A stretch of DNA of 64,000 nt from Hemileia vastatrix (taxonomy: Eukaryota; Basidiomycota; Pucciniomycetes; Pucciniales; Zaghouaniaceae), in assembly GCA_030280995.1 (NCBI GenBank), contig JASXTE010000005.1, positions 26,774,501-26,838,500 on the forward strand. The letters run 5' to 3'. Position 1 is the first letter of the stretch; each line of letters opens with the position of its first letter. Under the pieces are notes generated by a model that saw nothing but the letters and a program-made list of their open reading frames with translations, searched no databases and was not told the origin of the DNA. A program made the translations under genes and the position numbers. Shown piece by piece: positions 1-52,329 of this stretch.

Positions 1-416
1 ACTGATAAAAGATCACTCAATTTTCAGAAATGATTCTTGTTGTCCATAAAGAGATCCTCCTATTCAAATCTGTGTTGCACTTTGTCATTTTAGTTCAAAT
101 TAAAATGGTGGCACATTTACCCATCTTGAAAACCTCTTCCAGATCAGAGATGGAAATATATATTTTGATTGTAAAAAAATGCTTTGAATCTCTCTTATAT
201 GCATTGCATGTGTCTACTCTTGCTAATTTTTAGGATTTCAGTTGATTAAATGTTTTGTATTTAAAATATAAGTAATGTTTTTCTCCATATCTACATGACT
301 AAAATTCATTCTGGATTTCTATTAATAATTTGGTTAAATATGGTTTTTCAACAGCTTTATTAATCAACCCTTATGCACAAGATACATAAATTAACAAATT
401 TTTTTTTACTAAATCT
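1..416. other. AT-rich stretch with no recognised feature
   Basis: I see no conserved coding signal here. The short open frame near the start has no recognisable motif, and base composition alone explains it. Confidence 0.5.
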
Positions 417-662
417 AGAATTTTGGCAATACCCTCCCCTGCATTTCACTATATTAGGGGGTGGCGATTGCCATTTTTTTCATGTCAAAAATTTTTTTTA
501 TGTCTGAAAAAAAAATGGCAATACCTCATACTGAATTTTACTGTGGGAGGGGGTGGAGATTGCCAATTTTTTCATGTCAAAAATAATATTTATGTAAGAA
601 AAAAAAATTCACAATACCTCCCCCTGCAATTTACTGTGGGAGGGGGTAAAGATTACCAAATT
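417..662. repeat. Three tandem hairpin-forming repeats (GGCAATACC...GGTGGCGATTGCC)
   Basis: Three diverged units of roughly 85-90 bp each begin with a GGCAATACC-like arm followed by CCCCTGCA. Each ends in a G-rich arm that reads into GATTGCC or GATTACC, so each unit can fold back on itself. T-rich spacers containing CATGTCAAAA separate them. The same motif in reverse complement recurs at 35326-35760 inside transposon T. The arrangement is visible directly; a function is not. Confidence 0.6.
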
Positions 663-3600
663 TTCATTTTAATTTCATAAATTCTTAAATAAATCAATAA
701 AAAAATATAATCAGCCAAGTAAAAGTAATGGGATTCACAATTACACCTACTAATGATTTCAGATGTGACCAACGCCAAATAAATCATATGACAAGCAATT
801 TATTGACAATTCATCCATTCAATACAAATAAATAATTAAATGAACTAATTTATACAGCAGTGAGTCTCAATTGCACAAAAGTTTTATTTGATTGATTATA
901 TTTAATAATTGATAATTTAAAAATTTATGAAATAAAAAAAAATTGAAAATCTTCTAATTACCATATTTAGAACACCTCCCTAAAGATTTAATATAAATAG
1001 GGCCCTTCCCCCTTGCTTTACTTACCTGGTTTATCAGACTTTGGTTGATTTGGAATGAAAAACCAAAATGAGTAAGTGTTTCACAAGATTCCAAAAAAAT
1101 GATAACACTTTTTACAAGATATCAAACAAGGAGTTTCCTTGGTAGTTTGATGATTATCTCTTGGATTTTTGATTGATGATTATGCTGAGAAGAGTACCAA
1201 ATAGATTTGATGATTCCATCTCCTGAAAAAAACTCAAAACATCAACAAATCAGGGAAAAAATGATTTATTAAGAATAAAAATTGAGGAAACAAATGATAA
1301 AAAACAGTTGAGGAATAGATATACCTTGGGAGTGGTACAATGAAAAGTATCAGAAAAAACATTCATATTATGGAATATCAAAATCCAAAAATTTAAATTA
1401 GTTTACATAAAAAGACTCAACTTTAAAAGTAGATATCTCAGAAATTTCTGAGCCAAAATTGATTATGCTTTCTGGAAATGAAATTCATGCCTATAGAGAA
1501 CCTGTAATCAAAATAATATGAGATTTGAATGAACCAAAATCTAGCAAATGTTAATATTCATCCTCATAAAATAAAATTACAAAATTAAAAGGAATCATCC
1601 AAAACTGATATTTAGCTGATCAAATCAGAGCCAAAAGCCTGAAGTAGTATTTGAAATAGATTGCATAAGACCTATATGCATATTATGCAACATTGAACTT
1701 AGAAAATGTAAATTAGTCCATGAAACAAGATTCAACTTTGAAAGCAGTTATCTCAGCAACCACTGGACCAAATTCAACACCATTTGCTGGAAATAAAATC
1801 CATGATTCTTCATATTCTTCCAACAAAAGGATATGTCATTTAAAAAACCCTAACCCTATTTCTGACCTTTTATTTCTGACTTAAAAGAAAATCAAAAAAG
1901 GGTAATAAAATTTAAATCCAGGTATTATCAATGGTCTAAAAAGATCTATTTTAGCTACCTATGTTTTTTATAAGTATTATATTTGTTCCAGAGTAAGACC
2001 TACTTGAGAATATTAAAATAAAGTTGATGGAAGTTTGAGCCAAGTGGATGATAAATATCTCAAAAACCAGTGAGCCAAATCAGATGTTGCGTGGTGGATA
2101 TGAGAGCTAGGCTTCTGTAGAACCTTCTTAAAAGTGGAAATGTGATTTGAGAAAACAAAAAAATAAATAGAAACAATAACAAAAACAAATTCAGAAAAAG
2201 AACATCAGTTAAAATTGAAAAAAGATGGTGGGAGGATGACTTACCTGATGAGATGTCTTCAAAGATGTAAAAGGACCAGATAGAAGCTCAGGAAGTGATG
2301 GATAAAAGAAATATAAGAAAAGTTAAGGAAGTGAGAGAAGATGAAAAAAAGGATATGAGAGATCATTGAAAAACAGAAGAATGAATAATTATGTAATTTC
2401 TGAAATATCTAACTTCATGTTGAGATGATTAACCAAAATGAATCAGGAAGGGAAAAATTATGCTTTCAGTGAAAATTCAAAATAATAGTCAATATGCAAA
2501 TATAAAACAAACCCAAGTGGAGAGTACATGCAACTTGATCATTTTGAGAGCATGAAAAAAGGATTTAAAAGGGTTGTGTTGAAAATTTTGTAGTGTTCTT
2601 GGCATGATGACTAAGTTTTGAGGATATAAATTTGTTCAGGAATTGTCGTTAATGAAAGTAATGAAAAGCTCAAAATTTACTGTGGCACCATGTGTAAAAA
2701 TTTGTATCAAAAAAGTGGGAGGGGAAAGATGTGATGTGTGGTGAGTTGGGAGGATCTGTAGATTGGTTGGCTGTGCTGTGGTTGGAAAATTTTCACTAAA
2801 GTAGGACATATTTGACCCCATGTTTAAGATCTCATGTACCAAATCAGCCATGTTTCATCGTGTGTTTATGTGGTGGTTTTCAAATGAAATCCACCCGGAA
2901 TATTTGTTCAAGTTTGAGACCCCCTATTAATAATTAGATGGGTAGAGGAGGAGGAAGAGATCCTTAAGAAGATGAATAGAATAGTGCTTTAAAAATTTTT
3001 TACAGATAAATATTAAATTGAAATAAATTTTGTAAATATTTTTGTCATTATATTGGTTTCCACTTTTAAATGCAGTTACTATTTCACATGTACTCATACC
3101 AAAACTTGGTAAAGTGATTTATATAAGCATTAAATATTTACATCGGAAAACTTGCATATTAATTTCCATAACAACCATTCAAGTTATACACTTTAAGGAC
3201 TATTTTTTTTTATATAAATATAAATACTTCTTTTAGTTGAGTAACTGAAGATTTTATTTTCAATAGCCTGTAGGTCTTATATTTTAGGTGAAATTTCAAA
3301 AATTATACAAAATTTAGTTTTGCAAAGACTTAATAGATTAGAAGTGAGAAGTGACTATAATTTTTTTAAAATTTGAAAATAGGAATGGCATTAGTTATTT
3401 CAATCCCTTAATATTTGTGATCAAAAAATTTGCTAAATTTATCTATTGTTACAATTATGTAGTAAAAGATATTATTATTGTAAATTAAATTTACTTTCAT
3501 AATTTTATGGTTTATCTTTTGAATGCAAAGTAATGATTAGGTATGTTAAGGAATAATTTTCTTCCTCTAAATTGATAATAATATTGCATATTCAAAAGCT

Positions 3601-25386: not shown

Positions 25387-25940
25387 TGTAGACAATCCTG
25401 TAGTACTAGCTATAGGCCTTGACCAAGGGAGTTGGAGAAAAACCAGATATAAAATCCCCTGTCCCTTTAGAAAAATAGAGTGAGATTTACTTGCTAAAGT
25501 AAGTTGATTCCTGTTTTGCTAAAGCCCCTTTTCAACACACTTGACTGCTTGATGAGCCAAGAAAGTAGTCCCCAGATAGACTACCAGACCAAAGAACTGA
25601 AATGTAGAACAATGTCCACACCAGAGACAGAAAAGATACTTGATGTAGGCTGCAAATCCACACCAGAGACAGCAATAATACTTGCTATTAAACAGCAATC
25701 TTTTATATATGAAAAATGAGGAAATGACCCCTTAAAACTCAGAATATGAAAAATGTCTAAAAGACATAAAATATAGAGAAACACCAGGGCTATCCAATGA
25801 TAGTACCCAATACCCGCAGACCCAATATCCACGGAATAAAACCAGAAAAATACCCAATCCCTTAACAGATGTCAATTAAGACATGGACAAATAGCACCAA
25901 ATCACACAACAAAGGCCCCTGCCAATTTTGGAAGACCACA
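25387..25940 (-). repeat. 5' LTR of element A with internal deletion
   Basis: The copy is 554 bp against 1089 bp for the partner LTR. The ends match, but about 535 bp are missing between CTTGCTAT and TAAACAGCAATC (junction near 25687), including the GC-rich block. TTGT flanks it at 25941-25944. Confidence 0.9.
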
Positions 25941-27210: not shown

Positions 27211-29109
27211 TGTCAAGTGCCATGTTGTGGTCTTCCAACATTGGTAGGGGCCTTTGTTGTGTGATTTGGCGCTGTTTGTGCATGTCTTAATTGACATCTG
27301 TTAAAGAATTTAGTATTTTTCTGGTTTTATTCCGTCGATATTGGGTCTACAGGTATGTGGGTACTATCATTGGATAGCCCTGGTTTTTCTCTATATTTTA
27401 TGTCTTGTAGACATTTTTCATATTCTGAGTTTTAAGGGGTCATTTCCTCATTTTTCATATATAAAAGATTTCTGTTTAATTTTGTTTTTCGTGTTTTACG
27501 GGCTAACCTTAAGTCTTAGGTTTAAGTGCTTAGTACCATTGGATAGAGCTTATTTTTCTCTATATTTCATGTCACAAAGTTGTTATAGTGAAATTCTGTG
27601 TTTTAAAGGTTTTAGTAGTTGTAGCTAATTTTTCTAAGTAGATTAGTGGTTTTTGTTGGTTTTCTGGCTTCAGGGAGGCCGGGCCACTTCAGGCCGCATC
27701 TCCGACGTCGGGCGGCCCGCCCGCCTCTGTTTTAGGAGGTTGGGGAGCGCTCCAGGAGGGTTTTTTATGCAAGTTGGCGGGTACAGGCGCCAGATTGGTG
27801 GGTGCGCATGGGCTCTTAGTTAGTGGTCTGTGTGTACATAGTGAATAAGACAGTTTGGGGCAACCTTAATCATCATACAACCATCCGGAGGTGATATCAT
27901 TGTTCCTCACTCAGTTTTCACTGTTTTCTGGCCACAATTGGCTGTGTTTGTTGCAAGTGAGTTCTTCATTTAACTTAACTTTGGCAACTGTTTTCTCTGT
28001 TATAGTCTTGCAAGCTATAGCAAGTATTATTGCTGTCTCTGGTGTGGATTTGCAGCCTACATCAAGTATCTTTGCTGTCTCTGGTCTGGACTTTGTTCTA
28101 CATTTCAGTTCTTTGGTCTGGTAGTCTATCTGGTGACTACTTTCTTGGCTTATCAAGCAGTCAAGTGTGTTAAACAGGAGCTTTAGCAAAACAGGAACCA
28201 ACTTACTTTAGAAAGTAAATCTCACTCTATTTTTTAAAGGGACAGGGGATTTTCTCTCTGGTTTTTCTCCAACTCCCTTGGTCAAGGCCTATAGCTAGTA
28301 CTATAGGATTGTCTACAACGTGACACTCGAGGCAAAAGTAGCTCATTAAATCAATAATAAGATGCTCAAATCCATACTTGAAGCACAGAAAGTAATTCTC
28401 CATAGCAACTGCGACTTTCCTTTGTGTACTCGCTATTCAACCGCGCTTGCCTAAACTCTAAATCTAAATTAGTCAATATCTCAATAGTGTGTCTCAGTAT
28501 TTTCTTCAATAAGCAACGCACAGCGCAATAGTCAATGTAATGGTGCACTAAAAGGTTTATTAAATGTCTGAGAATTATTAAAAATGGTAGTGAGAATGCA
28601 CGGAATGGATAGTGGAGGATTAAGGGGTTAACGGATGTTAGTTAGGGGGGTCCAGGTGTAATGGATGTATTTTTAATGGTCTGTGGTTTGAGGAATAGTG
28701 GATGGGTATTAGGTCAATGCGAGGAGGAGTAAAGGATATAAAAGGGGTTGGGTTTTTGGTTCGATATTCCTTATAATTAAATTATAAAACGTATTTATAT
28801 TTAATAGTGGTAAAAGCTTTAAGTTAAATAATTATTATTGTATCTTTCTTTATTTTCTCAATAATCATTCCTAAATCCTAAATCTTGATTGTTGAGTTTC
28901 CAACCCTTTGTGAGATCTTAAGAATTTTAATATTACCTTTCAATTATATTAGAATCCTTCTTGAACATAGCTCAAAGCAGTAGTTCTTCCCTCGAGTCAT
29001 CTTCGAATCACTTCCTCGAATCATTCCTCTGTACTTCGAAGAAGTCTCTAAACACCTCATCTCACTTACAGGAACATCCTTGACCTTGTGCGTAGGTCGT
29101 CCGGTGACA
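27211..29109 (+). repeat. 3' LTR of chromovirus F, split by solo LTR B
   Basis: The first 15 bp (27211-27225, TGTCAAGTGCCATGT) and the remainder (28322-29109) together match the 5' LTR. B inserted at an ACGT in the first 20 bp. The LTR ends GTGACA and is followed by TCCAT (29110-29114), which matches the left flank of F. Confidence 0.9.
27226..28317 (+). repeat. Solo LTR B of the element A family
   Basis: This 1092-bp LTR begins TGTGGTCTTCC and ends GATTGTCTACA, with flanks ATGT (27222-27225) and ACGT (28318-28321). No internal sequence is present, as expected after LTR-LTR recombination. It contains the GC-rich block (about 27665-27810) and tandem roughly 42-bp repeats near 28003-28095. The terminal CCTATAG...CTATAGG inverted repeat lies at 28289-28308. 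Confidence 0.9.
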
Positions 29110-29731: not shown

Positions 29732-30461
29732 CTCCACAATGAGAATAAATTATGAATCATTCTTTTTATTGGGTTTTTTTGTTGGTGATTCTGTGCAACT
29801 GTTGTTTTGGAAACCTTTTTTGTTAGATGGTACCCAGAGGGGGCATATAGATTTCATCTTGGTAATTGAGGGGGTAACTGATGTGCTGGCTGCTTTGTAT
29901 AACAGTTACCCCAGACTGACTGTTTCCAACCCCTTCTCTTAATTTAGTTGATCCCTAGACTATGTCTTCTTTTAACAGGTTTTTAGTCCTCTATGAATTT
30001 AAACTGGATTTATCTTTGGTCTTAAAGAGCTGGACCTTTCATTATTATTGGTTTTTGGCTTATTGTGTTGGTTTTTTTTTTGTTAGAAGGTACCCAGGGG
30101 GCTTCTAGATTTTATTTTGGAATTTTTTGGGGTAACTGATAATCTGGCTTGTCTGTAGAACAGTTACCCCAGAATTTCTGTTTCAAGTCTTTTGTTTGTC
30201 CTAGTTGAATTCTAGTTCTATTTATGACATTCAGGATTTCAGTCCCCTATGGATTTAAACTGGATTTCTGTAGTCTTCAAGTGCTGGTCTTTTCCCTGAT
30301 GGAATTTTTTTGATTGGTTGAATTGTGAGGTGGATGTTTTTTTAGAAGGTACCCATGGCGGGGCTTCATGATTTTATTTTTGAAAGTGTGGGGGTAACTG
30401 ATGGGCTGGAAGCTCTGTATAAAAGTTACTGCAGAATTTCTGTTTCAAGTCCTTGGTTTTA
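29732..30461 (+). repeat. Three tandem H1 units downstream of E1 pol
   Basis: Three copies of the roughly 250-bp unit each contain GTTAGAAGGTACCC-like and GCTTCTAG-like arms. H1 hairpins lie at 29871-29912, 30129-30170 and 30391-30432. A TTTTTAGTCC...TATGAATTTAAACTGGA core ends the units. The third unit is interrupted at TTA by transposon T and continues at 43605. Confidence 0.8.
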
Positions 30462-30546
30462 TTAGGGGGTATCAATGTTCAGGGATCCGCAATTAGTGAT
30501 CAGGATTTTTTTTTTGGGATCAGACATTATTAATTTCAGAAGATTC

Positions 30547-30578
30547 TTATCCACTAGCGCCGGGCCTAGTGGATAAGT
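30547..30578. repeat. Subterminal hairpin of T
   Basis: CTTATCCACTAG and CTAGTGGATAAG form a perfect 12-bp stem around CGCCGGGC, about 80 bp inside the left TIR. A CpG-containing loop is notable in such AT-rich DNA. Near the right end GCGGAAGATAAT...ATTATTTTCCGC (43529-43564) forms another stem. Confidence 0.7.
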
Positions 30579-30880
30579 AATCCACAATAATGCATTATCC
30601 TGCCTCTTATACCCCAATTTCCATTCCTAATTCCTGATCCCAAACTCATCTCATCCATGATGGATTTGCAAGAAAGTGACATGACTCATAATTGCTGATG
30701 CCATCCTTAAGTCTTTCCTCACTCTATGCTACTTAGTTTTGGTGGCAAAAACTTGAGTTTTTTTTCTATCTACACACCCCAACTGCACATTTGGCAGTGA
30801 ATTACCACTTCCCTCATCACATAACCCTTCCACCGGCAACAATGTAACATCTCTCTACTAGGAAGCTACTTCACTCAACA

Positions 30881-32204
30881 ATGAATGCTAATACTTTTCT
30901 TTTAGTTATTTACTATAAATCTGACTCTGATTTGGAAGATTCTTTAGCTTATATGTGTTTTCTTTCCAAAAAGCTTTACATCATCACCAGGGGGCCAAAT
31001 CTTTATCATGATCCCCAATATGATCTGGCCTCCATTCTCAACATTCCTCATTTAAACTTCACACAACTTTTTAGAACTTCTCCCATTTCTTTCTTCATAC
31101 TTTATCAACTCATCTCCAATCATCCTATCTTTCATAAAAATTCCCATAACAAACAGCGTAATCCTGCCATCCAACTTGCTGTTGCACTATGTTGCTTTGG
31201 CTCAAATGGAAACGGTGCTGCTGTAAGACGTTTGGATAATCTCTTTAACATAGGATATGGTACTGTGATATTATACACCAAGCGCTGTATTAATTCTATC
31301 CTTTCCCTCAAGTCTCAAACACTTGCTTGGCCAACTCCAGAACAGTGACTTGAATCCTCTCAAGTAATGCAAGCTGAAGGTTTCCTTGGCTGTGTAGGTT
31401 TTGTTGATGGCACAACTACACCTTTGAGTCAAAAGCCTGATCATGATGACAACCATTATTTTGATCACAAAAAAAGGTTTCTTCAAAATATTCTCCAATT
31501 TCTCATCCTTCATAAACTAACTTATTATCTTCTTTCTAGATACTCTATTGCCGTTCAACTTGTATTTGATGTCAATAAAAAATTAATTGCTTTTCATAGT
31601 GGCTGCCCTGGCTCATGTCATGACTTTTCCCTCTTCCAAAGAATGAGGATTTCTCAACCCCCTGACTCATACTTTGACAAATCTCAGTACCTTCTTGCAG
31701 ACTCAGCATATGCAAGTGGGAAGTACATTATACCTGCTTTCCGTGGTGCAAGTTAAGAAAGTGACTTCAAAACTGCCTTTAATTATCACCTTGCCCAATA
31801 AAGAGTATGAATTGAAAATGCTATAGTTATTTTAAAGGGACAATTTTCTAGTCTTGGGAGCTCAGAATCCAATTTCAAAAAAATTGGAGATCAAAACTTC
31901 AAATCATTGGATCATGACTTGCATTATACTCCACAATATCCTAGCTGATTTAAAGGATGATTGGAATGATCTTTATGAAGAAGAGGATCCTGAACCAGCA
32001 CCGGCTCTCCCTCCCTTGAATCACAAAACATTCATTCAACCGGCATACTCTTTGTCATTATGCTTATTACTCTCCAACATTTCTCTTCACCACCCTTTTA
32101 AATTATTTTTTTGTACTCTTGAAATGTCCTCATTGTGTACTTTATTCACTTGTTTTGGTATTTTGGTTTGTTGCATATTAATTTTTTTTTGGAATTTACA
32201 GTGA
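30881..32204 (+). pseudogene. Harbinger (DDE) transposase of T
   Basis: Exon 1 (from the ATG at 30881) reads through one TGA at 31346 in the same frame. It contains AVALCCFGSNGNGAAVRRLD and VGFVDGTTTPL with the first catalytic Asp. An intron (about 31478-31538) with an ACTAAC branch site and CTTTCTAG acceptor joins HKKR to YSIAVQLVFD. Then come GCPGSCHDFSLFQ, YLLADSAYASGKYIIPA (second Asp) and, after stops near 31755 and 31800, IENAIVILKGQFSSL with the Glu. A frameshift near 31858 leads to NHWIMTCIILHNILADLKDDW, a hallmark end of fungal PIF transposases. The tail beyond about 32070 is doubtful. The enzyme would cut and paste T at TWA sites. Confidence 0.88.
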
Positions 32205-32569
32205 ATATCTTTTTTTTGGATGGATCATTGATTTTCTTTCACCAGCTCAACATGAAATTGCATATTTTGTCAGTGATTTTTTTTTCATTCATCACTCATA
32301 TCCTTTTCATCGTCTCCTCAAACATCACTCAAATATTTTTTTTACTTTTATTTTCTCAACTCATCTCACCAGGTAAGTCTTTTTTTTTCTTTTTTCTTGT
32401 TTTTTATTTGCTAATCATGAATTTTTTCATTTTTCATTTCTTTCATTTTTTTGTTTTTTTTGTTTTTTTTGTAAGTCCTTTTTTTCATTTTCAAGGTTAG
32501 ACTAATTTTTTTTTTCTCTTTTTTCTCTTTTTTTTTCTTTTTTTTCTCTCCTTAACCCTCTTTAGCTGC
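32205..32569 (+). other. T-rich spacer in T
   Basis: This is a long pyrimidine-rich spacer dominated by T runs. The open frame through it has no recognisable motif. Confidence 0.5.
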
Positions 32570-33195
32570 CTCATTTCACCCCTTTTCCTCTCTCTTTACC
32601 TGCCTCAAGTACCTCCTTCTCCCCTCTCTTTACCTTCCACATATCCCCCTTATTTCACCCTCCTTGCCTGTCCCAAATCCCCCCTTTCCCCCCTCTTTAG
32701 GTGCCCCATGACCCCCCCTTCCCCTCTCTTTAGGTGCCTCATCACTCCCCCCTTCCCCTCTCTTTAGGTGCCTCATCACTCCCCCCTTCCGCTCTCTTTA
32801 GGTGCCTCAACTCTCCCCCCTTCTCCTTTCTTTAACTGTCTCAAACCCCCCCCCCTTCCACTCCCCTATAGCCACCTCTACCCCCCCTCCTTCTTAACAA
32901 AAAATTTCTAACAATCGTTTGTTAAGAAGGAGGAGGGGCTAGAGGAGGCTTAAGGGGAGTGGAAGGGGGGTGTTTGAAGCGGCTAAAGAGGGGGGGAAAT
33001 GGGGGGGTTTGGAACATTTAAAGAGGGGCGAGGGGGAGTTTTGGGGAGTTTTGTGGCAATTAAGGAGGGGGTTTGAGGGGGATTTTGAGACAGGAAAGGA
33101 GGAGATTTTAGGGTGGTTTTGAGGCAAGGAGGGAGGGATTTTAAAGGTGATTTCAGAGAAATAAAGGGGAGGAAAGGGGCTGTTATGGTAGTTAA
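32570..33195. repeat. Large inverted repeat with C-rich/G-rich arms in T
   Basis: The left arm (about 32570-32904) consists of roughly 36-bp units with CTCTTTAGGTGCCTCA and CCCCCC. The right arm (about 32920-33195) is the diverged reverse complement, with AAAGAGGGG units. They meet at CTCCTTCTTAACAAA...TTTGTTAAGAAGGAG around a loop near 32900-32920. The strands are strongly polarised, pyrimidine then purine. It lies between transposase and dioxygenase genes and encodes nothing recognisable. Confidence 0.75.
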
Positions 33196-33660
33196 AGAGG
33201 GGTTACCTATTTTTTAAAAAACATACTAAAATGTATTTTTTTTTTTTTTGGCAGAATTTTAGAAAAAAAAAAACTTTTACATTCTGTTAAGGTCTTTCCC
33301 TGTAAATTACAAAACAAAAAAGGTTTAGATTTTAATCTTTAATTTTTCTTACAAATAATTTTACTGAATTAATTTTTTTTTAATTTATTTGTTTTGATTT
33401 TTCTTTTACTGATTTTTTTTTTAATTTTTTTGACAGGATTTTCCGTGAAGGTTTTTATAACCAAACTTCAGGTTTTATTTTTTATTTTTTTTGATATAAT
33501 TTTTACTGAAAATTATTATTTTTTTTTCTTATTTTTTTTTATTTTTTTTAAAAGGATATTGCTTTAAATTTTATTTTAAAAGATATTATTACGTGAGTTT
33601 TTTTTTAAAAAATATGTGTTGAATTTTTTTTGAAATTTAAATTTTTTACAGATCAAAAAA
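33196..33660 (+). other. AT-rich leader before the dioxygenase gene
   Basis: T-rich sequence with no coding signal ends in TTTTTTACAG just before the ATG at 33661. That is compatible with a 3' splice site or simply low complexity. Confidence 0.4.
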
Positions 33661-34989
33661 ATGTCTTCTTCTTCATATTCACCCCTTACTTCTCTATCAT
33701 CTTCATCTTTATCCTCTTTATCATCGTTATCTTTATCATCTCTATCATCTTCTTCAAAATCAACTTCAATACAATCATCTTCTTAATCATCAAAAAAAAT
33801 TAATGATAATCAGTCTCATCAGAATAAAAGATATCTGGAAAAAAAATTCTTCTTCTAAATCATCAAAAAAAATTAAAGATAATCAGTCTCATCAGAAGAA
33901 AAGATATTTGAAAAAAAAAATTCATCATCTAAATCACCAAAAAAAATTAAAGATAATCAGTCTCATCAGAAGAAAAGATATCTGAAAAAAAATTCTCTGT
34001 GAAAGTTTTTTTTGTCATATCCTAATCATTTTTTTTCATAAAAACTAAAGTAGATAAAAAAAATCAATATCCAAAAAAATTACCAGAAGATATCAAATAT
34101 CTAACCATATTTGGAGATGATTAAGTTGCTGCAGTTATCAGTAATACTTATAAGGCTCAATTCATTTTGGAATTTCAGTCATTTGATGGTGTAAAAGATG
34201 AATCTTTTAATCAACTATCAGATGTTATCATAACTCTTTATCAAATAGCTTTGGTTTGGTTACCTATAAGGAATACAAATTTGTTGGGTGGTATCATGAT
34301 TGGATTTGGTTGGAGACCAGGTTTTGTTAAAGGATATTCTCTTGGTATGTCTAATAAATTTTTTTCTATTCTTAATATCATTTCACTTATTTCATTTATA
34401 TAGGTTATATTCATTGCTCAAGAGTATCACTAAAGCTCAAAAAGATGAAGATTTTTGCTTATGGGACACTCTACCTTCCTTTAACTCTTTTCTTGCTCTT
34501 TGACTCAAAAAGCTCTGTAATAAAGCATTTGAAAAAAATGATGAACTTGCAACCAAAGTTGGAATACCAAATTGGTGTGACTGTGAATGGGAAGATATCA
34601 CCCACAAATATCTTTTATTTTCAAATGTTATTATCCCTCATTCTGGATTCCACAATAGGATTCATATTGATAGGAATGTTGCCAATTTTCTTACTTTTGG
34701 TATATTCTCATATATCAATCCAATAACTGGCCAACCAATACCATATCCAGCTAAAATCAAAGGATATGGTTTATATTTTCCACAACACTGGTGCCTCATT
34801 GATTTTGGTTTGGGAAATGGTATCATCAAAATTATTTGGAATTCTTCTAAAGATAATCATCAAATGACCAAAGCTCCTTCTGGTTTGGAATCCTGTCAAG
34901 ATTTCACACATTTTGGTTGCTCATTTCAAATTAGTCATAAGTTGATTCAAAGAATCAGCAAGGTAAAGAAAGAAGGTAAAGTTAATTGA
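33661..34989 (+). pseudogene. TET/JBP-like 2-oxoglutarate/Fe(II) dioxygenase carried by T
   Basis: The N-terminus is a Ser-rich tract followed by three tandem copies of a basic repeat (SSKSSKKIKDNQSHQKKRYL, about 33783-33990). The catalytic part reads NTNLLGGIMIGFGWRPGFVKG, then after an intron (GTATGT...ATATAG, 34345-34403) WDTLPSFNSFLAL. It continues with HSGFHNRIHIDRNVANF, in which H-I-D at 34663-34671 is the iron-binding HxD, then TFGIFSY, IKGYGLYFPQHWCLIDFG and IIKIIWNSSKDNHQM, where the His at 34858 is the likely distal ligand. This order matches the Tet-like 2OG-FeII domain of fungal TET/JBP proteins as I know it. Those enzymes oxidise 5-methylcytosine. Stops at 33786, about 34121 and about 34500, poly-A length shifts and a one-base frame change at the intron make it a pseudogene. 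No similarity search was run. Confidence 0.75.
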
Positions 34990-35325
34990 TTTAAAAAAAC
35001 TTTATCTAGATCCAAAAAGTACGGGGATTAGAGTTGTCATCAAAAAATTTATATTTTTTCATAAATTTTTAATAAATATTTTTTATATATCAATTTTCTC
35101 AAGTAAAGTGATGAGCCAACAGCCTTTGGTTGTATAATAGGTAATCATGATAACATTTATTTGTTTCATGGGTTCCTCTAGCCTATATCTGTGAAAAATT
35201 CCAAACTTTTGTTTCTAGATTTGATCTGCATTTTGGCTTGAGGAATAGTCATTACTTTAAACTAGGGAGATTGATATATATATTTGATATTTATTTAATA
35301 ATTTATGTAATTATATTAAATTTAG
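34990..35325 (+). other. Spacer downstream of the dioxygenase gene
   Basis: This AT-rich stretch has no recognisable coding or structural signal. Confidence 0.45.
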
Positions 35326-35765
35326 ATGACTTCCACCCCTTACTTCAATAAAATGCAGGGGGGGTATTGCCAAATTTTCAAATTTTACATGTAAAATTGA
35401 TGACTTAGAAAAATTTTGGTGATACCCATCCCCTGGCTTCAACAAAATGCAGGGGAGAGTATTGCCAATTTTTTAAAACAGATATAGAGTTTTTTTGACT
35501 TGTAAATATTTTGGTGAAAATTTTTTGGTGATACCCGTCCCTTACTTCAATGAAATCCATGGGGGGTTTGCCAAAATTTCTTATAAGACTTGTGAAATTC
35601 TTTACATGTAAGAATTTTGGGGATACCGGGAAAATTTAGCGGGTAGTAAAGCCAAAGTTTCATATAAGGCTTTCAAGATTCATGACATAAAAGAATTTTT
35701 GTGATACCCACCCCTTACTTCAAAAAAATACAGGGGTGGGGGATTGTCAAATTTTCAAAGGAGAC
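35326..35765. repeat. Four tandem foldback repeats in T (GGTGATACCC...GGGTATTGCC)
   Basis: About four units of roughly 110-130 bp each have GTGATACCCACCCCTTACTT followed by AATGCAGGGG and GGTATTGCCAAA, so each can form a hairpin. The reverse complement matches the units at 417-662 outside the transposon. One unit near 35622-35660 is degenerate. Confidence 0.7.
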
Positions 35766-35913
35766 ATGAAAATTTTATTTAAAAAAAGAATATTTAACAT
35801 TAAAATATGAAAATTCAAGTAATGTTTGATAGAGTAATGAAATACAGGAAAATATTGTAAATTTTATGTACAAATAAATATGAACAGTTGAAGTGTGAGA
35901 GAAATAAAACAAA

Positions 35914-37264
35914 CTAGTCATCCAACAATTCCTTTAAACATTCAATTTCCTCAACAGATTTATTAGCTTTAAAACATTCTATCAAGAAATCTTTCTTTTT
36001 GGAATTTTCTTCGTGATCAAACTTATATTTCATCTGCTCTAATAGGTTTGGATTTTCAAGTGTTTTCTCCTCTTTTTTTTGATTTTTCAATATTTAGAGT
36101 TAACTCATACTTCCTTTCCTCCAAATCTTGGGCCCAATCATCCTTCCGTAAAGAGAGCTTGTACTTCCTCTCTTCCAAATCTTGTAGCCTATCATCCCTC
36201 CTTGAAGAGAGCTTGTATTTCTTCTTTTCAAAGCTTAGAGTCTCTTTAGCAATTTTCACTTGTTCTAGAGTGATAATAAAAATTAATATAAAGTGGAAGA
36301 AAATTAGAGTAAAGTAATAAGAGTTATGGTATCACTTACCAGCATCACTTTTCTCTAAAAGTTGTTCCATAGACGAAAAAGGGGTTTGTGATGAAGTATC
36401 ACCTTTTTGTCTTCTTTGTGAGTGGAAATTTAGACTACATGAAGCCCTACGCTTCTTGTTCAAGGTCATATTTTCCTCCTCATCATTGTAACTAACTTCA
36501 GACTCAGTTGATTCAGGATCCTGGGTTTGTTTGTCAGCCTTTTAAGAAATAAGAAGAAGATAAGTAAATAAAAAATAGAATTGATAAGATAAAAGAAAAA
36601 AGAAACAGACCTGAGTTAGATTTGGTTGGGTTAAATCACCAATAGGATCTACATAAAAGCTATCTAGATTTGTTTCATTCAAATGAGGGGAGGCTTGAGT
36701 GGAGGAAGAGGATGGGAAAAGATTTGCTTCAACATCATGTTCGGAGATAGTATCTTCTCCATCCAACATGTTTACAGGATTAACATTGGCTCGCTCTCCA
36801 AAAATTGAATCCATCTATTTAAAGTAAGGACATAAAGATTCAAGTTTATTGTCTATGGATTTGATACGCTTAGTTATATCAATTTCGGTAACCCCAAAAC
36901 CAGTGGAAGATGAAAGAGCCTTTGCCTTCTTTTATTTGGCTCAGTAATTCTTGAAGCATTCAGAAATCTGTTTAGGCAAAAGATCAATCCTTCCTTTGGT
37001 CTTATTCTGTAATTCATTTGCCATTAGAAGATGGCCATTAACTTTTGATGCTGGGGGCCGTCCTACTTTAGTTGCATACTCAGTACAAAAACAAGAATCA
37101 TAGTTAGATTTTGTTTTCAGCTAGTTGATAAGAATTAGATGATCATCTTTTTTTAATTGAAAAGTCTTAGATTTCTCAGCTGAGCAGGGGAAAGAGGAAG
37201 TAATGGGATTTGAAGAACAACTGGGTGATGGCTGCCTTTGAGATGATCTAGGACGAAGAGGCAT
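35914..37264 (-). pseudogene. Myb/SANT-like protein of T (Harbinger partner)
   Basis: The gene starts at the ATG at 37262-37264 (MPLRPRSSQRQPSPS). The DNA-binding-like domain reads DDHLILIN, LKTKSNYDSCF, KVGRPPASK, GRIDLLPKQISECFKNY and TGFGVTEIDITKRIKS, then MDSIFGERANVNP. Two introns (about 36539-36610 and 36266-36340, the latter with a GTAAGT donor) separate an acidic linker from a charged coiled coil with a 16-residue repeat (RDDRLQDLEERKYKLS). One frameshift near 36060 leads to a C-terminus ending ECLKELLDD at 35914. Stops near 37127, 36944 and 36832 break it. PIF/Harbinger transposons typically encode such a protein to bind DNA and assist the transposase. I recognise the TGFGVTE pattern from rust fungal proteins. 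Confidence 0.75.
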
Positions 37265-37630
37265 GTTAAAATATAAATGAAGATGAAAAGGAGCAGTAAC
37301 AAGCAGATGAGATAGAGAGATGAAAAGGAGCAGAAACAAGCTTATAAGATAGCGAGATGAAAAGGAGCAGAAACAAGCAGATAAGATGGTGAGGGGTTCT
37401 GAGCGGATAGAATGAACAGGATGGGATGAGAATAAGAGCGCACAGAAAGGTAGAAGGCATATCCAGAGAGTAGTCCAAGATGTGGTTATGGCAGAATGTA
37501 GGTCAAGATGTGGTTATGACAGAAAGTTGTCCAAGATGTGGTTATGAAAAATTGAGTAAAAAAATGTCGGATAAGAGGTGAACATTGAAAGGTAAAGTGT
37601 CTAATAACCCAATCATTAGCAAAAATAATT
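37265..37630. repeat. Subterminal tandem repeats of T
   Basis: Three roughly 38-bp copies of GATGAAAAGGAGCAGAAACA lie at about 37278-37390. Three roughly 28-bp copies of GTCCAAGATGTGGTTATG follow at about 37473-37550. They lie between the Myb-like gene and the right end, where transposase or Myb-protein binding sites might be expected. Confidence 0.6.
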
Positions 37631-37634
37631 GTGG

Positions 37635-38581
37635 TGTGGTGATCCAAACCTGGGTAGGCCTTTGGAGTGCATATTTGGAGGTATTTGGTATGTAGGGTGT
37701 TATTGGGGTTATGGTGTTATTAGTGGTTTTTTTCATCTTTAGGTGATATTTAGCAGTGTTTATGGAGGCTTAAGCTAGGGTCACTTATTATGTCTTAGCT
37801 TAATGTCCTTTCTTTTCTCTTAATTTTGGTATCCCTTATGGGTGGTTACCTTGCTTTATAGGGTAGTTATGGTGTTGTTATTGGTATTTATCAGATGTTT
37901 ATTGCTTAGTGCTGCTTATGTAGGCTTAAGCTAGGGTCACTTATTATGTTTCAGCTTATTTTCCTTCATTTTATTTTCATTTTGGTATGTCTTATGTGTG
38001 TTTATCTTGTTTATTAGTGAAGTTATGGGTTTTTAGGGTTTTTTAGGGTTTTTATGGGTTGTATGGGTGTTTTAGGACGTAGAAGTGGCCAGCCCGCCCC
38101 CAAGCGGCCTGCCTGCCCCTAAGCGGAGCCGCCTCTAAGCGGCCTGGCTGCCTGGGCGCTGGCGAAGCGCTAAAATGCACTTTTATGCATTAAAAAGTCT
38201 GGGAAAGCTGGATTTTGGGCAGGGAATTGGTCAGGGTGGTCTGTGCACTGGCTGTATGATGCGTGTGTGGGAAGATCTTTAGGGAATCATCTTATCTCTT
38301 TACTCATCGCCTCTCTATTCCTCACTGTCTTATTGGCTTGTGTTTTGTTGAAATATATATTACTGTTAATTTCAACTCTTTCTAGTAGTCTGTCTGGGAC
38401 TATTATCTTCACTTTTAAAGGGGTCAAGTGTGTTTAATTAGAGGGTCTAGCAAACAGATCTCCAATTTTCTGCAACAGATAAATCTAACTTGTTTTTCTA
38501 AAGGGACAGGGGTTATTCTCTCTGGTTTTTCTCCAACTCCCTTGTTCAAGGCCTATAGCTAGTACTATATGATTGTCTACA
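37635..38581 (+). repeat. 5' LTR of Gypsy derivative E3
   Basis: This 947-bp LTR begins TGTGGTGATCCAAACC, ends GATTGTCTACA, and nearly matches the 3' copy at 42599-43528. The flanks are GTGG (37631-37634) and GCGG (43529-43532). A GC-rich block lies at about 38080-38180. Confidence 0.92.
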
Positions 38582-38585
38582 TTTC

Positions 38586-38602
38586 TGGCGCCCAACGTGG
38601 GG
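38586..38602 (+). promoter_or_regulatory. Primer-binding site of E3
   Basis: TGGCGCCCAACGTGGGG starts five bases after the LTR and is intact and identical to that of element A. Confidence 0.8.
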
Positions 38603-38819
38603 TCAAATCTGTTGGCTTTTTGGAATCTCTGTTGATCTAGGCTTCTCTCTTTGGTGGATCTCTTTTGGTTGATTTTGAATTTGGTGCTATATCTCTTTGT
38701 GGCTGGTCTAGGGGTCTTCTTTTCTGTTGGTTTTGGTCCCTCCTAGGTCTCTAAGGCTACTGGGGGGGACTTTGGCTATCTTTGGTGGAGATTGGAGGCT
38801 GTAACTTGGAATTCCTAGG

Positions 38820-40107
38820 ATGGTTAGGATTCAGTCTTGGGATTGTTCAAGGTTTTGGGGAGAGGATTCAAAGGGGTTTTTGGCTAGGTTTGAGGTTGCT
38901 GCTGAGATTGATGGGGCCTCACTTTTGGACATGGTTAGGCAAGTAATCTTTTTCATTGGCAATAGGGAGGTGGAGAAGGAAGTTTCTGTTATGGAAGGAT
39001 ATAGGATTCAGGACTGGGGAAAGTTGAAGACTGAAATGATTAAAAGGTGGCCTAATACTTTCTCAATGGTGGATCTTCATGGGATTTCTAGGAAGTGGGA
39101 ATTGAAAGGTGGTGTAACTTCTCTTTCTCAGTATGGGGAATTTATGGAGGAGTTTGGGGAGGCTCTGGATTATCTGGTATATAATGATATATTACCACAT
39201 GAAGATGGGGCCAAATATGTTTTTTGGAGTTCCATGGGTAGGAATATAAAGGTGGAGGTTTTGGAGATTCTTTTCAAGGCTGACTTGATGAAGACTCTTC
39301 CAAATGGGGAAAATACGATTCCTGGTATGGCTATTCTGAAGGAGGTTATTTTGGGATATTTGGATGGTATGATGGATAGGGATGTGGAATCTGGAGAGGA
39401 AATCCTGTTGGATGGAGAGGTTCAGGAGACTGTTGTGGAAAATTCAGTCTCTAGGGAGGTGTTGGAGCCATCAATTTTGGAAGATGGGGACTCTGATGAT
39501 GTTTATGAAAATGATTTTTCTTTTCCAAAGGATTCCATAGGATCTCAAGAATGTGCTTCACTGGATGTTTTGGAAATGTACACACTGGAGGATCAGTGTA
39601 TTTCCTCAAGTTTGGGTGAATTATGTGGGAAGGAGGACTTGTCTGGTCATGAAGAAGGATTTTAAGATATTGAGAAGGAATCTGTGGTGGATGAATGGTT
39701 GTTGAGGGATGATTATTTTTCTTTCTCAAGTTCAGATAATGTCTTATTGGAGGAGGATGTATCAGTTGAATTTTTGGATGTACAGAAAGATTCTGTCTTG
39801 GATCGTTTTCAAATAGAGGAAGATTATTTTCAGGTGGTTCCCTCAAGATCAGAAGTTATCTGCTTGGAGGAGGATTTTTTATTTTGATGTTATGGATGTT
39901 ATTCTGGAGGATTTTTCAGATTCTAAGCAAGATTCCTGTAGGAAAGGGGAAAATTGTGATGTTTTGGATGTCACTGGTATAGAGGTTGATTTTAAAGATG
40001 TGGTGGAGGATCCAGATGTTTCACAGGGTGGAGAATTTATTGATTCTGCTAATGTGAAATATGGAAGACTCAGTGTAAGGAGGATGGAAGATTTTTTGGA
40101 GGTCTGA
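38820..40107 (+). pseudogene. gag: Gag-like protein of E3 with acidic tail
   Basis: The 281-codon open frame from 38820 is the longest intact Gag segment of the E family. It reads IQSWDCSRFWGEDSKGFLAR, DMVRQVIFFIGNREVEKE and KRWPNTFSMVDLHGISRKWE, matching element A Gag. After one TAA at 39663 the same frame continues to 39887 as a strongly acidic segment (DDYFSFSSSDNVLLEEDVS, LEEDFLF). The remainder to 40107 is in another frame. There is no zinc knuckle, protease, RT or integrase. E4 Gag has a similar acidic tail. The protein may use other elements' enzymes for movement, which I infer from the missing pol. Confidence 0.8.
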
Positions 40108-40600
40108 TGTTGGGATATCAGAATTGGAAGAGGAGATTAGGGGGTTCAAGCCCTAGGGGCAAACTTATTGGTTTAAACCTTGGGATTTCAAGAATCTGAT
40201 TCCTCCGAAATGAGGATAAGCTACTTAATTTGTTTTGGTTTTGCTTAATTTGGCCTCTATGTATTTGGTCAGGATTATTTTTGTTTTGTCCAATTCTTTT
40301 CAGTCTCTCTGGTTCAAGTCCCTATATAAAAAAGGGAGGCCGGGCGGCTTCAGGTGGCACCTCCGACGTTGGGCAGCCCACCCGTAATGAAAAAAAAAAA
40401 AATCTTAGTATAATGAAGATGGAAGAAAAGAAAAATTCAAGTGAAGATGGGTATTTTATTTAAAAGAAAATGAAGATAAAAATGAAGATTATTGGTTTTA
40501 TTTCACCTCCAGCATGAGGTTAAACTGCAAAATTTTATTTCTAAATTGGATTTTTTTTGGCTTTAAAGAATTTTAATGGTTTTTTATGGGAGAAGATTTG
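40108..40600 (+). other. E3 internal junction where pol is missing
   Basis: From the Gag end the sequence passes a GC-rich patch resembling an A/B/D LTR segment (about 40337-40385), then the CTCCAGCATGAGGTTAAACTGC leader motif. It then goes straight into the 3' H1 units. Relative to element A, nearly all of pol is deleted. Confidence 0.65.
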
Positions 40601-40609
40601 TGTTGGAAA

Positions 40610-41165
40610 ATCCTTTTTGTTAGAAGGTACCCAGGGGTGGGGCTTCTAGATTTTATTTTGGCAAGTGTGGGGGTGACTGATGGGCTGGCTGCTCTATCAA
40701 CTGTTACCCCAGATTGTATGTTTCCAACCCCTTCTCTTAATTTTGTTGAATTCTAGTATTGGTTTTTTTTCTTTAACAGGTTTTTAGTCCACCATGACTT
40801 TAAACTGGAAATTCTTTTGGTCTTCAAGTGCTGGACCCCTCATGTTTATTGGTTTTGTTTAATTTTGTTGGATGTTGTGTTTTTGTTAGAAGGTACCCAG
40901 GGGGGCTTCTAGATTTTGCGTTGGCAAGTGTGGGGGTAACTGATGAGCTGGCTGCTCTGTAGAACAGTTACCCCGAATGTCTGTTTCAAGCCTTTGGTTT
41001 TTTTCTAGTTGAATTCTAGTGTTGTTTTTTTGTAATTCAGGTTTTTAGTCCTCTATGACTTTAAACTGGATTGCCTTGGATGTCTTTTGGTGCTTTTGGA
41101 TTGGTGGTGGATCACTGGTGGTCTCCCATCATTTTTACTTATTGGAGGGAGCCCACCCAGTGATC
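40610..41165 (+). repeat. H1 units and H3 module of E3
   Basis: Two H1 units carry hairpins at 40669-40710 and 40933-40974; the second has perfect 10-bp arms GGGGTAACTG and CAGTTACCCC. They are followed by H3 (41110-41165, GATCACTGG...CCAGTGATC). Order and spacing match E1 and, in reverse, A. Confidence 0.82.
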
Positions 41166-41385
41166 TCTTCTGTTGACCTGGAGCTGGCTTTACTATGTGG
41201 TTCTAGGGTGTTGGCTGTGAAAGTGGTGGATTCAAGATTTTTTTCTTTTTTTCTCTTTTTTTTCTTTTAATTTTTTTATGGAGGCTATGTTTGTTCAAAG
41301 GCTCAACATAGGGCTCTGGCAATGTTTTTGGTAGAAGAGAAGGAGTCAAAATAAAAATAAAAAAATTAAATTTTTTTAGGTGTGA

Positions 41386-41455
41386 CCACATCAAGATGCA
41401 CTTGGATGTGGGTAAGGTATCAGGGGATCAGCTCATCAATTGGCTGGGGGATACC
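41386..41455 (+). repeat. H2 module of E3
   Basis: CCACATCAAGATGCACTTGG followed by ATGTGG, then GGTATC...GCTCATCAATTGGCTGGGGG...GATACC. Both hairpins are intact apart from single changes. Confidence 0.75.
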
Positions 41456-41539
41456 ATTTTATTTTGTTTTATTTGTTAAAGGAGGTTAAATGTTTGGCTT
41501 TGATGGTTTTTGGTTTGGGGATTTATGGGATATATCTTC

Positions 41540-42290
41540 AAGATTTTTTTCTGGAAGGTCCTTCAAGACTTCAAGCTGAATTTTTTTAATTATGGGATAT
41601 ATCTTCAAGATTTTTTTTCTGGAAAGTCCTTTAAGACTTTAAACTTATCTTTTAATTACGGGCTCAAGATTTTTTGACGTCCATCAAGACTTTAAACTGA
41701 AAATTCTGTTAGTCCTCCAAGACTTAAAACTGGCTGGTTGTTAAAGATTTATTCAAGAATTTAATTTTACTACTGTGGATCTAGTAGTCTTTTAAGACTT
41801 TAAACTGGCTTGTTTCAAGATTTTGTCAAGAATTAGTCTGTCAAGACTTTAAACTGAACACTGTGTTAGTCCCCCAAGACTTTAAACTGAGGATTGTTGA
41901 TAGTGAAGTCCCCCAAGACTATAAACTGAGGAATGGGAGGCAGTGTGAGGTGGAAGTTTAAAGGCAGAAGGATCCAAGGGGGAACTTCTGAATTTTGTAA
42001 AGGCAAGTTTGGGGGTGACTGATGGGCTGGCAGCTCTATATACAGTTACCTTAGAAAGTTAGTTACTTCTCTAAATCTTTTTCTGGTTGATCTCTGGTTC
42101 TGGGTTCTATGATTCAGGTTTTTTCAGTCCCCCAAGACTATAAACTGAGGATTTTTGGAGTCCCCCAAGACAAGAAACTGAGGGCTGTTAGTCCCCCAAG
42201 ACTTTAAACTGAGGGCTCTTAGTCCCCCAAGACTTTAAACTGAGGGTTGTGAGTCCCCCAAGACTATAAAATGAGGAAATTTTTATGCTG
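41540..42290 (+). repeat. Short-repeat array of E3
   Basis: At least a dozen copies of AGTCCCCCAAGACTTTAAACTG occur at irregular spacing, most conserved near 42125-42275. One H1 hairpin is embedded (42012-42051). There is no room for antisense ORF b between H2 and this array, so E3 has lost it. Confidence 0.8.
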
Positions 42291-42598
42291 GTAGAAGGTT
42301 ATAGTCGGGAAGACTTGTCAACTGGATATCACTTTTCATTGTTGGAGGCTGGTACAGCCAGAGTTGTAATTCAGGAAAAGAAGAAAGAGATTCTTTTCAA
42401 AGAGATAGATTTAATTTAAAGGCATGGTGAAAGAGAAGTTTTAAAGAAGAAGCTTGGATTGCTGGTTCAGAAGTTCACTTAGGATGGAATAAGATCTGGT
42501 GGAAGAGATAAATGGGCTGTTTGTAAAGATTCTGAAGAGGTGCTTTAACATGGTTGTTGGCAAAGGAAGAATGAGGAAATTCTTGATTGGAGGGAGGA

Positions 42599-43528
42599 TG
42601 TGGTGATCCAAACCTGGGTAGGCCTTTGGAGTGCATATTTGGATGTATTTGGTATGTAGGGTGTTATTGGGGTTATGGTGTTATTAGTGGTTTTTTTCAT
42701 CTTTAGGTGATATTTAGTAGTGTTTATGGAGGCTTAAGCTAGGATCACTTATTATGTCTTAGCTTAATGTCCTTTCTTTTCTCTTCATTTTGGTATCCCT
42801 TATGGGTGGTTACCTTGCTTTATAGGGTAGTTATGGTGTTGTTATTGTTATTTATCTGATGTTTATTGCTTAGTGCTGCTTATTTAGGCTTAATCTAGGG
42901 TCACTTATTATGTCTCAGCTTATTTTCCTTCATTTTATTTTCATTTTGGTATGTCTTATGTGTTTTTATCTTGTTTATTAGTGAAGTTATGGGTTTTTAG
43001 GGTTTTTTAGGGTTTTTATGGGTTGTATGGATGTTTTAGGGCCTAGAAGTGGCCAGCCCGCCCCCAAGAGGCCTTCCTGCCCCTAAGAGGCCTGGCGGCC
43101 TGGGCGCTGGGGAAGCGCTAAAATGCACTTTTATGCATGAAAAAGGTAGGGAAAGCTGGATTTTGGGCAGGGAATTGGTCAGGGTGGTCTGTGCACTGGC
43201 TGTATGATGCGTGTGTGGGAAGATCTTTAGGGAATCATATTATCTCTTTACTCATAGCCTCTCTGTTCCTCACTGTCTCATTGGCTTGTGTTTTGTTGGA
43301 ATATATTACTGTTCATTTCAACTCTTTCTAGTAGTCTGTCTGGGACTATTATCTTCACTTTTAAAGGGGTCAAGTGTGTTTAATTAGAGGGTCTAGCAAA
43401 CAGATCTCCAATTTGCTGCAAAAGATAAATCTCACTTGTTTTTCTAAAGTGAGAGGGGTTATTCTCTCTGGTTTTTCTCCAACTCCCTTGGTCAAGGCCT
43501 ATAGCTAGTACTATAGGATTGTCTACAG
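42599..43528 (+). repeat. 3' LTR of E3
   Basis: This 930-bp LTR is preceded by the polypurine tract TTGGAGGGAGGA. It starts TGTGGTGATCC and ends GATTGTCTACA, and GCGG follows at 43529-43532. It is about 17 bp shorter than the 5' copy, partly in the GC-rich block (about 43045-43130). Confidence 0.92.
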
Positions 43529-43604
43529 CGGAAGATAATTGTGGTATGCAGATTATTTTCCGCAATTAATTTAATTTCAGATCAGTGAACATTGATACCC
43601 CCTA

Positions 43605-44130
43605 TTAAGTTGAATTCTAGTTCTCTGCTTTTATTCAGGTTTTTGTCCTCTATGGCTTCTTGGTGGTTGATTACTGGTGGTCTCCCATAATTCTTATGTA
43701 TTGGATGGAGCCCACCCAGTGACCTTCTCTTTGGACCTGGATTTGCTTCTGTGATTTGTTGTGAAGAAATGGAATTGTAGTGGTCTTAGATTTTTTTTCT
43801 TTTATTTTCTTTTATTTTGTTGGTGAGGGTTATTTTATAAAATCAAAAAAATATTTGGGTGTACCACATCAGGGTCACCTGGATGTGGGCAAGAATTTGT
43901 GCAGAAATTCTCTTACATTGGCCAGGCAATGCTGTTTTTCTTTTTCATTATTATTTCATAAGTTTCTTTTATTCATTCATTTTATTTTGTTTCATTTTTA
44001 AGTTTTTCTTAATATGTTTAAATCATTTTTCAAATCTTTAAATCTTTGAAAGGTTTATCCACATCAAGGTGCACTTGGATGTGGGTAAGGTATCAGGGGA
44101 TTAGCTGACCAATTGGCTAGGGGATACAAT
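43605..44130 (+). repeat. E1 3' region resumed: end of H1 unit, H3 and two H2 modules
   Basis: The interrupted H1 unit continues with AGTTGAATTCTAG. H3 is at 43669-43722, H2-like modules are at 43865-43889 and 44059-44127, each with CCACATC...GATGTGG arms. Confidence 0.78.
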
Positions 44131-50883: not shown

Positions 50884-50887
50884 ACAT

Positions 50888-51978: not shown

Positions 51979-52329
51979 ACGTGGCTACTTATAGTCTATT
52001 TAAACTTATAAAAGTCATTTAATATTTTAATAAATATGTATAAGCATAATAACCATATATATAAATATTATAAGCTTGATGCAATTAAGGTAATCTTATT
52101 TGAAAAACTATTATAATTAGTCCTGTGATTACCTAGGCTGACATGTAGGGTAGAGAAATATAGGTTTTGTTAAAGAAGCTAATGGTAGAAATATGTGTGA
52201 AACTTTAGGCACTAATATCTAGAAACAGGCTGATGAGAGCATTTTACCTAAATAATGTGATTAATAGCTTACCGTTGTTGAAGCCTTAATTTTAGCATTG
52301 CAAAAAATTTCATTTAAAGAAGCTTTATT
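51979..52329. other. AT-rich region without recognised features
   Basis: No coding signal or repeat was identified apart from the target duplication at its left edge. Confidence 0.4.

What the first reader, a model, noticed from the sequence alone, without database searches (positions are those of the whole stretch)
30465..43604. A Harbinger transposon that carries a TET/JBP-like DNA dioxygenase
The 17-bp perfect TIR and the TTA duplication delimit a unit holding a PIF/Harbinger transposase, a Myb/SANT-like protein and a dioxygenase with H-I-D and distal His in a Tet-like context. Fungal TET/JBP expansions have been linked in the literature to other DNA transposons (the KDZ group). A Harbinger with this cargo is, to my knowledge, not a standard type. 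Oxidising 5-methylcytosine could protect the transposon from silencing or open its target chromatin. The element boundaries are seen in sequence. The enzyme family is a recognition from motifs. The role is inference.
Basis: partly seen in the sequence, partly recalled or inferred. Interest (0 to 1): 0.95.

Follow-up and report, generated by a model that had tools for sequence, protein, structure and literature searches.

The report
Rust-fungus Harbinger transposon carrying TET-like dioxygenase
This is a decayed jumping gene, apparently from a rust fungus, that carries its own copy of a TET-like enzyme presumed to lift DNA-methylation marks; the combination is real but was described in print in December 2025, so this is another member of a known kind.

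Summary
A perfect 17-bp inverted repeat bounds a 13,138-bp unit (30465-43602) with a DDE_Tnp_4 transposase, a dioxygenase hitting Pfam's Tet-like family PF20515 (E=2.1e-19), and a third gene on the opposite strand. About 5.9 kb (37635-43527) is a later LTR retrotransposon; the Harbinger itself is about 7.2 kb, and its genes are broken. Two corrections: the flanks read TATTA on both sides, so a TA, TTA or TATTA duplication all fit; and no Myb/SANT domain was detected in the third gene. A second, more decayed relative with dioxygenase and transposase fragments lies at 1-2924. The class is published: Kojima 2025 (PMC12730594) describes 15 TET+ Harbinger families ('PHISTA', TA duplications, a third protein) in rusts. 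So this is a new member of a known kind, host species unidentified. One point that paper's text does not raise: the 2-oxoglutarate-anchoring arginine of known TETs appears to be histidine in the relatives found (47 of 49 rows with a letter; Arg in none), so co-substrate use is an open, testable question. Other genomic copies could not be searched: the genome tool did not complete (17 tries).

The parts
30465..30481 (+). left terminal inverted repeat GGGGGTATCAATGTTCA; flank TATTA at 30460-30464
   Evidence: exact match; flank read
43586..43602 (-). right terminal inverted repeat; flank TATTA at 43603-43607
30848..31985 (+). PIF/Harbinger-type DDE transposase, interrupted (frame open 30848-31345, stop, open 31349-31753, stop, further pieces to 31985)
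   Evidence: DDE_Tnp_4 E=3e-9 on 31349-31753; tblastn with P0057 31058-31717 55% identity and P0059 to 31985; D at 31406, D at 31700, E at 31814 (positions; catalytic assignment inferred)
33661..34986 (+). TET-like dioxygenase gene, interrupted: Ser-rich and basic N-terminal part, piece 34125-34343, probable intron 34344-34403, piece from 34405 with stop at 34501-34503, catalytic piece 34504-34986
   Evidence: PF20515 E=2.1e-19 on 34504-34986; P0025 aligns 34164-34349 and 34405-34944; intron and gene start inferred from the sequence
34663..34671 (+). HxD iron-binding motif (His-Ile-Asp)
   Evidence: invariant columns H205 and D207 in A3
34858..34860 (+). distal iron-binding His
34909..34911 (+). 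His of the T-H-F-G motif, at the probable place of the 2OG-anchoring Arg of TET2/NgTET1/CcTET
   Evidence: equivalence inferred
33766..33986 (+). three 74-bp tandem repeats encoding a Lys-rich stretch near the dioxygenase N-terminus
   Evidence: repeat family D9; reading frames
35917..37262 (-). third gene, opposite strand, in pieces; no family match above a curated cut-off; limits approximate
37635..43527 (+). LTR retrotransposon inserted into the Harbinger (LTRs 37635-38581 and 42599-43527, 94.4% identical; flanks GTGG / GCGG)
1..2924 (-). second, more decayed relative: dioxygenase C-terminal fragment 1238-963 (-), transposase fragment 2-178 (+), GGGGGTCTCAA-type terminus ending at 2924; other end presumably off the window

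Best explanation
This is a dead copy of a PIF/Harbinger-superfamily DNA transposon of the rust-fungus kind described as TET+ PHISTA. In an intact copy, the DDE transposase would cut at the GGGGG...CCCCC inverted repeats and insert at TA-rich sites. The TET-like dioxygenase would oxidise 5-methylcytosine, or another modified base, on the element's DNA, easing methylation-based silencing and possibly C-to-T hypermutation. Shown here: element bounds, transposase and PF20515 homology, catalytic letters, later LTR insertion, broken frames. Inferred: co-mobilisation, DNA as the substrate, the anti-silencing role, the rust host.
Against: No other genomic copy could be examined (17 unanswered calls to the genome search). 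The duplication length is not settled; removing 5 nt fits paralogous target copies as well as or better than removing 2 nt in all eight comparisons (two of them ties), a weak point against a TA duplication and so against PHISTA. The transposase was not placed in a tree. No activity is shown, and the 2OG-anchoring Arg seems absent. The model has mean pLDDT 61.6, TM-scores normalised by the model below 0.5, and its lowest TET rows (CcTET 7vpn 10.8, NgTET1 5cg9 10.5 and 5cg8 9.4) tie with or fall below prolyl hydroxylases; no TET2 or NgTET1 row is among Foldseek's 50 shown.
Confidence: 0.8

Rival explanations
1. The dioxygenase is not cargo: it is a remnant of another element or a host gene that landed inside a Harbinger by chance.
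For: The genes are broken and the region is full of nested elements. Rust TET genes also sit in hAT, IS3EU, EnSpm, ESTA, Dileera and Helitron elements (paper section).
Against: Among the 25 inverted pairs shown of 333 found, none closely bounds 33661-34986 except A/T-rich ones (the other 308 were not seen). A second decayed relative has the dioxygenase and flanking non-coding DNA in colinear order, with a transposase fragment nearby, though on the other side and in the other orientation. Rust TET+ Harbingers are published.
Confidence: 0.1
2. A canonical Harbinger/Nuwa element with transposase plus Myb/SANT protein and a TTA duplication, in which the dioxygenase is an extra recent capture.
For: TTA is one reading of the flanks, and the paralogue comparison slightly favours removal of 5 nt, which TTA also predicts. 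One piece of the third gene is predicted as three helices, at pLDDT 56 only.
Against: No Pfam Myb/SANT hit on the third-gene pieces at E up to 10 or up to 1. No usable fold match. The TA|GGGGG...CCCCC|TA layout is symmetric, whereas TTA needs asymmetric ends.
Confidence: 0.15
3. The rust family kept the TET fold but no longer uses 2-oxoglutarate in the usual way: it uses another co-substrate, as algal CMD1 uses vitamin C, or is a catalytically changed base-modifying or binding protein.
For: His instead of Arg in 47 of 49 rows with a letter. CMD1 is the closest solved fold, and CMD1 could not use 2OG (PMC7854593 passages). CcTet R385A, the matching Arg, abolishes activity (PMC11040006 passages).
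Against: Equivalence of the His to that Arg rests on sequence register, not a superposition. The homologues were gathered by shared 5-residue words, which can favour relatives with the same motif. His may still anchor 2OG. CMD1 itself keeps an aligned Arg (Arg410) that points away, so the parallel is loose.
Confidence: 0.2

Closest known systems
TET+ PHISTA (Harbinger) transposons of Pucciniales (Kojima 2025, PMC12730594)
   Same: Harbinger-superfamily transposase, TET/JBP-like dioxygenase with HxD as in the PU type, third protein without detected Myb/SANT, TA next to the termini.
   Different: The window's dioxygenase is 45% identical or less to every hit aligned over 130 residues or more, and 48% to the best over about 110; it joins no supported clade. 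The flank duplication could be 5 nt. The copy is dead and split by an LTR element.
Canonical PIF/Harbinger and Nuwa
   Same: DDE_Tnp_4 transposase, short TIR starting with G's, possible TTA site.
   Different: Extra dioxygenase; no Myb/SANT protein detected.
KDZ (Kyakuja/Dileera/Zisupton) TET+ transposons
   Same: DNA transposon carrying a TET/JBP dioxygenase in basidiomycetes.
   Different: Different transposase; the rust Dileera example has 8-bp duplications (paper text).
CMD1 (Chlamydomonas), CcTET, NgTET1, human TET2
   Same: Double-stranded beta-helix fold and HxD...H.
   Different: 11-14% identity to CMD1 in the fold alignments; His at the probable place of the 2OG-anchoring Arg.

Membership tests
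PIF/Harbinger superfamily | DDE_Tnp_4-type transposase | tested here: met
   E=3e-9, 37.1 bits against cut-off 24.8
PIF/Harbinger superfamily | terminal inverted repeats bounding the unit | tested here: met
   exact 17-bp pair
PIF/Harbinger superfamily (canonical) | 3-bp TWA duplication | tested here: inconclusive
   TATTA on both sides fits TA, TTA or TATTA
PIF/Harbinger superfamily (canonical, Nuwa) | Myb/SANT companion protein | tested here: inconclusive
   no Pfam Myb/SANT match on the pieces searched; weak three-helix model; gene is in pieces
TET+ PHISTA | TA target-site duplication | tested here: inconclusive
   TA abuts GGGGG/CCCCC at both ends and follows the terminus at 2924; paralogue comparison leans to 5 nt
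TET+ PHISTA | PU-type TET-like dioxygenase within the element | tested here: met
   PF20515 E=2.1e-19; HxD rather than HxE; relatives with names all in Puccinia/Austropuccinia
TET+ PHISTA | transposase clusters with PHISTA in a tree | not tested
TET/JBP dioxygenases | double-stranded beta-helix with HxD...H triad | tested here: met
   (model of relative P0025, not of the window copy)
TET/JBP dioxygenases | Arg that anchors the far carboxylate of 2OG | tested here: inconclusive
   His in 47 of 49 rows with a letter, Arg in none, but positional equivalence not checked on structures
TET/JBP dioxygenases | oxidation of 5-methylcytosine | not testable with these tools
   needs an enzyme assay
KDZ transposons | KDZ transposase | tested here: not met
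   the transposase ORF 31349-31753 hits only DDE_Tnp_4 and DDE_Tnp_1 at E up to 1

The most novel reading that the evidence does not exclude
The rust transposon TET-like branch sampled here has lost the arginine that anchors 2-oxoglutarate and carries a near-invariant histidine instead. These selfish enzymes may therefore use a different co-substrate (as CMD1 uses vitamin C), or leave a DNA modification other than 5hmC/5fC/5caC on rust transposons.
Probability: 0.15. Interest if true: 0.75.

Novelty: new member of a known kind. Interest (0 to 1): 0.33.

Why it matters
It is a further, divergent case of a transposon carrying a presumed methylation-erasing enzyme, in a rust whose species is not identified. 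It fits the published view that rust TET genes travel with DNA transposons. The Arg-to-His change seen in the relatives gives a sharp biochemical question about what this enzyme branch does.

Tried and rejected
The genome search ('own', DNA of 33661-34989) was asked 17 times and never answered. Genome-wide copy number, same-TIR copies and the host species therefore stay open.

CpG loss as a special mark of the dioxygenase was rejected: the 862-bp piece 34125-34986 has 0 CpG (21.5 expected from composition), but 75 of 983 overlapping windows of that size outside the element also have none.

The pair at 53146-53394 and 63161-63409 was considered as a related miniature element because it has GGGGG/CCCCC next to TA; its inverted repeat seems to run on beyond that point (sequence), so it was not counted.

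One literature query failed, two found nothing, and the 2014 PNAS paper on fungal TET/JBP and KDZ is not held; what is said of it comes from Kojima 2025.
Full report
Observation. The 17-bp repeat GGGGGTATCAATGTTCA is exact at 30465-30481 and, inverted, at 43586-43602, and occurs nowhere else in the window at up to 3 mismatches; shuffles average 0.24 matches, and 3 of 100 reach two. The unit is 13,138 bp. Both flanks read TATTA directly outside GGGGG and CCCCC. TA and TATTA fit symmetric ends; TTA needs an extra TA on the right end. The insertion lies in retroelement-like DNA with paralogues elsewhere in the window. In the empty-site comparison, removing 5 nt scores as well as or better than removing 2 nt against all eight paralogous stretches that cross the site under both versions (two ties; six of the eight run nearly end to end on the left flank). 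The stretches are related to each other, so this is weak evidence for TTA or TATTA over TA.

Later insertion. The part 37635-43527 is an LTR retrotransposon: its LTRs (37635-38581, 42599-43527) are 94.4% identical, they start TG and end CA, and the flanks GTGG and GCGG look like a 4-bp duplication with one change. Without it the Harbinger is about 7.2 kb.

Genes. Of ten ORFs searched, 31349-31753 hits DDE_Tnp_4 (E=3e-9) and 34504-34986 hits PF20515, Tet-like 2OG-Fe(II) oxygenase (E=2.1e-19); the other eight had no hit above a curated cut-off. Transposase relatives align along 31058-31985. The dioxygenase pieces align to P0025 in order, 34164-34349 then 34405-34944, across a probable intron, with a stop at 34501-34503. 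The copy looks dead.

Second relative. At the window's left edge, a dioxygenase C-terminal fragment (1238-963, minus strand; best E 7e-8 against 4.3 kb, 1e-6 against the window) lies about 0.8 kb from a transposase fragment (2-178, plus strand; E 9e-13 against 4.3 kb, 1.5e-11 against the window). The DNA is colinear with this element (295-2591 with 35705-33433, E 2.7e-45; 2147-2615 with 32494-32050, E 1.3e-31), against a best of 2e-12 in 30 approximate dinucleotide shuffles, some of which may be shortened. Most of the weaker matches in that call, some in the other orientation, are at shuffle level, including the DNA match of the transposase fragment. A GGGGGTCTCAA-type terminus followed by TA ends at 2924. 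The transposase fragment is on the far side and in the opposite orientation, so the arrangement differs from the main element. This is one more association of the two genes, not proof of co-mobilisation.

Literature. Kojima 2025 (PMC12730594; abstract, passages, sections 3.1 and 3.4, the first of two parts of the discussion, and figure legends read) reports 15 TET+ Harbinger families from five Puccinia species and Austropuccinia psidii, with TA duplications, a third protein without Myb/SANT, and the name PHISTA. It proposes that the enzymes counter methylation-based silencing. The window's element fits this class. Searches for PHISTA/Harbinger/TET (20 of 47 papers listed) and rust fungi/Harbinger/dioxygenase/transposon (10 of 48 listed) put that paper first, and no other listed title describes such an element; titles and abstract openings only were seen.

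Active site. Aligning all 56 homologues plus the window (57 rows), the column at P0025 position 287, in the motif T-H-F-G after the distal His, has His in 47 of 49 rows with a letter, Ile and Thr in one each (P0011 and P0012, which look frame-shifted there), Arg in none, and gaps in 8. One of the 47, P0014, also looks frame-shifted, so its His may be chance. Many rows are near copies, and the homologues were collected by shared short words, which can favour this motif. At the matching place TET2 has Arg1896 and NgTET1 Arg289, which hold one carboxylate of the 2OG analogue (PMC7854593, passages). CcTet has Arg385, whose loss abolishes activity (PMC11040006, passages). The equivalence is inferred from motif order and could be off by one residue. 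A term search of Kojima's text finds no 'Arg' or 'arginine' (figures not seen); it does leave open activities other than TET's.

Judgement. Real and recognised rightly in the main, but the class is already published; the addition is a divergent member, a second relic beside it, and a specific active-site question.

Noticed in passing
1-2924: Second, more decayed Harbinger-like relative with dioxygenase and transposase fragments in opposite orientation; its other end presumably lies off the window.
   Followed up: partly
27225-28322, 50887-51983, 13478-14572, 25387-25940: Several 93-97% identical LTR-like copies of one retroelement family lie around the Harbinger, which sits in retroelement-like DNA.
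   Followed up: no
4230-7125 and 19355-22246: A 2.9-kb inverted pair, 75% identical.
   Followed up: no
53146-53394 and 63161-63409: Two 249-bp copies, 94% identical, in opposite orientation, with GGGGGTGGACTTGCTAGC-type inverted ends; look like a miniature element.
   Followed up: partly
31505-31717: P0058, filed as a Xanthomonas hawaiiensis transposase, is 82% identical to this rust-type transposase and also matches a stretch that looks like intron here; fungal DNA in that bacterial assembly is the likely reason (inferred).
   Followed up: partly
33766-33986: Three 74-bp tandem repeats giving the dioxygenase gene a basic, Lys-rich N-terminal stretch.
   Followed up: no
34311-34316: Trp-Arg in the N-terminal piece resembles the GFR motif of relatives, where several relatives show Cys, His or Gln instead of Arg; a candidate for the other active-site Arg of TETs (inferred).
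   Followed up: no
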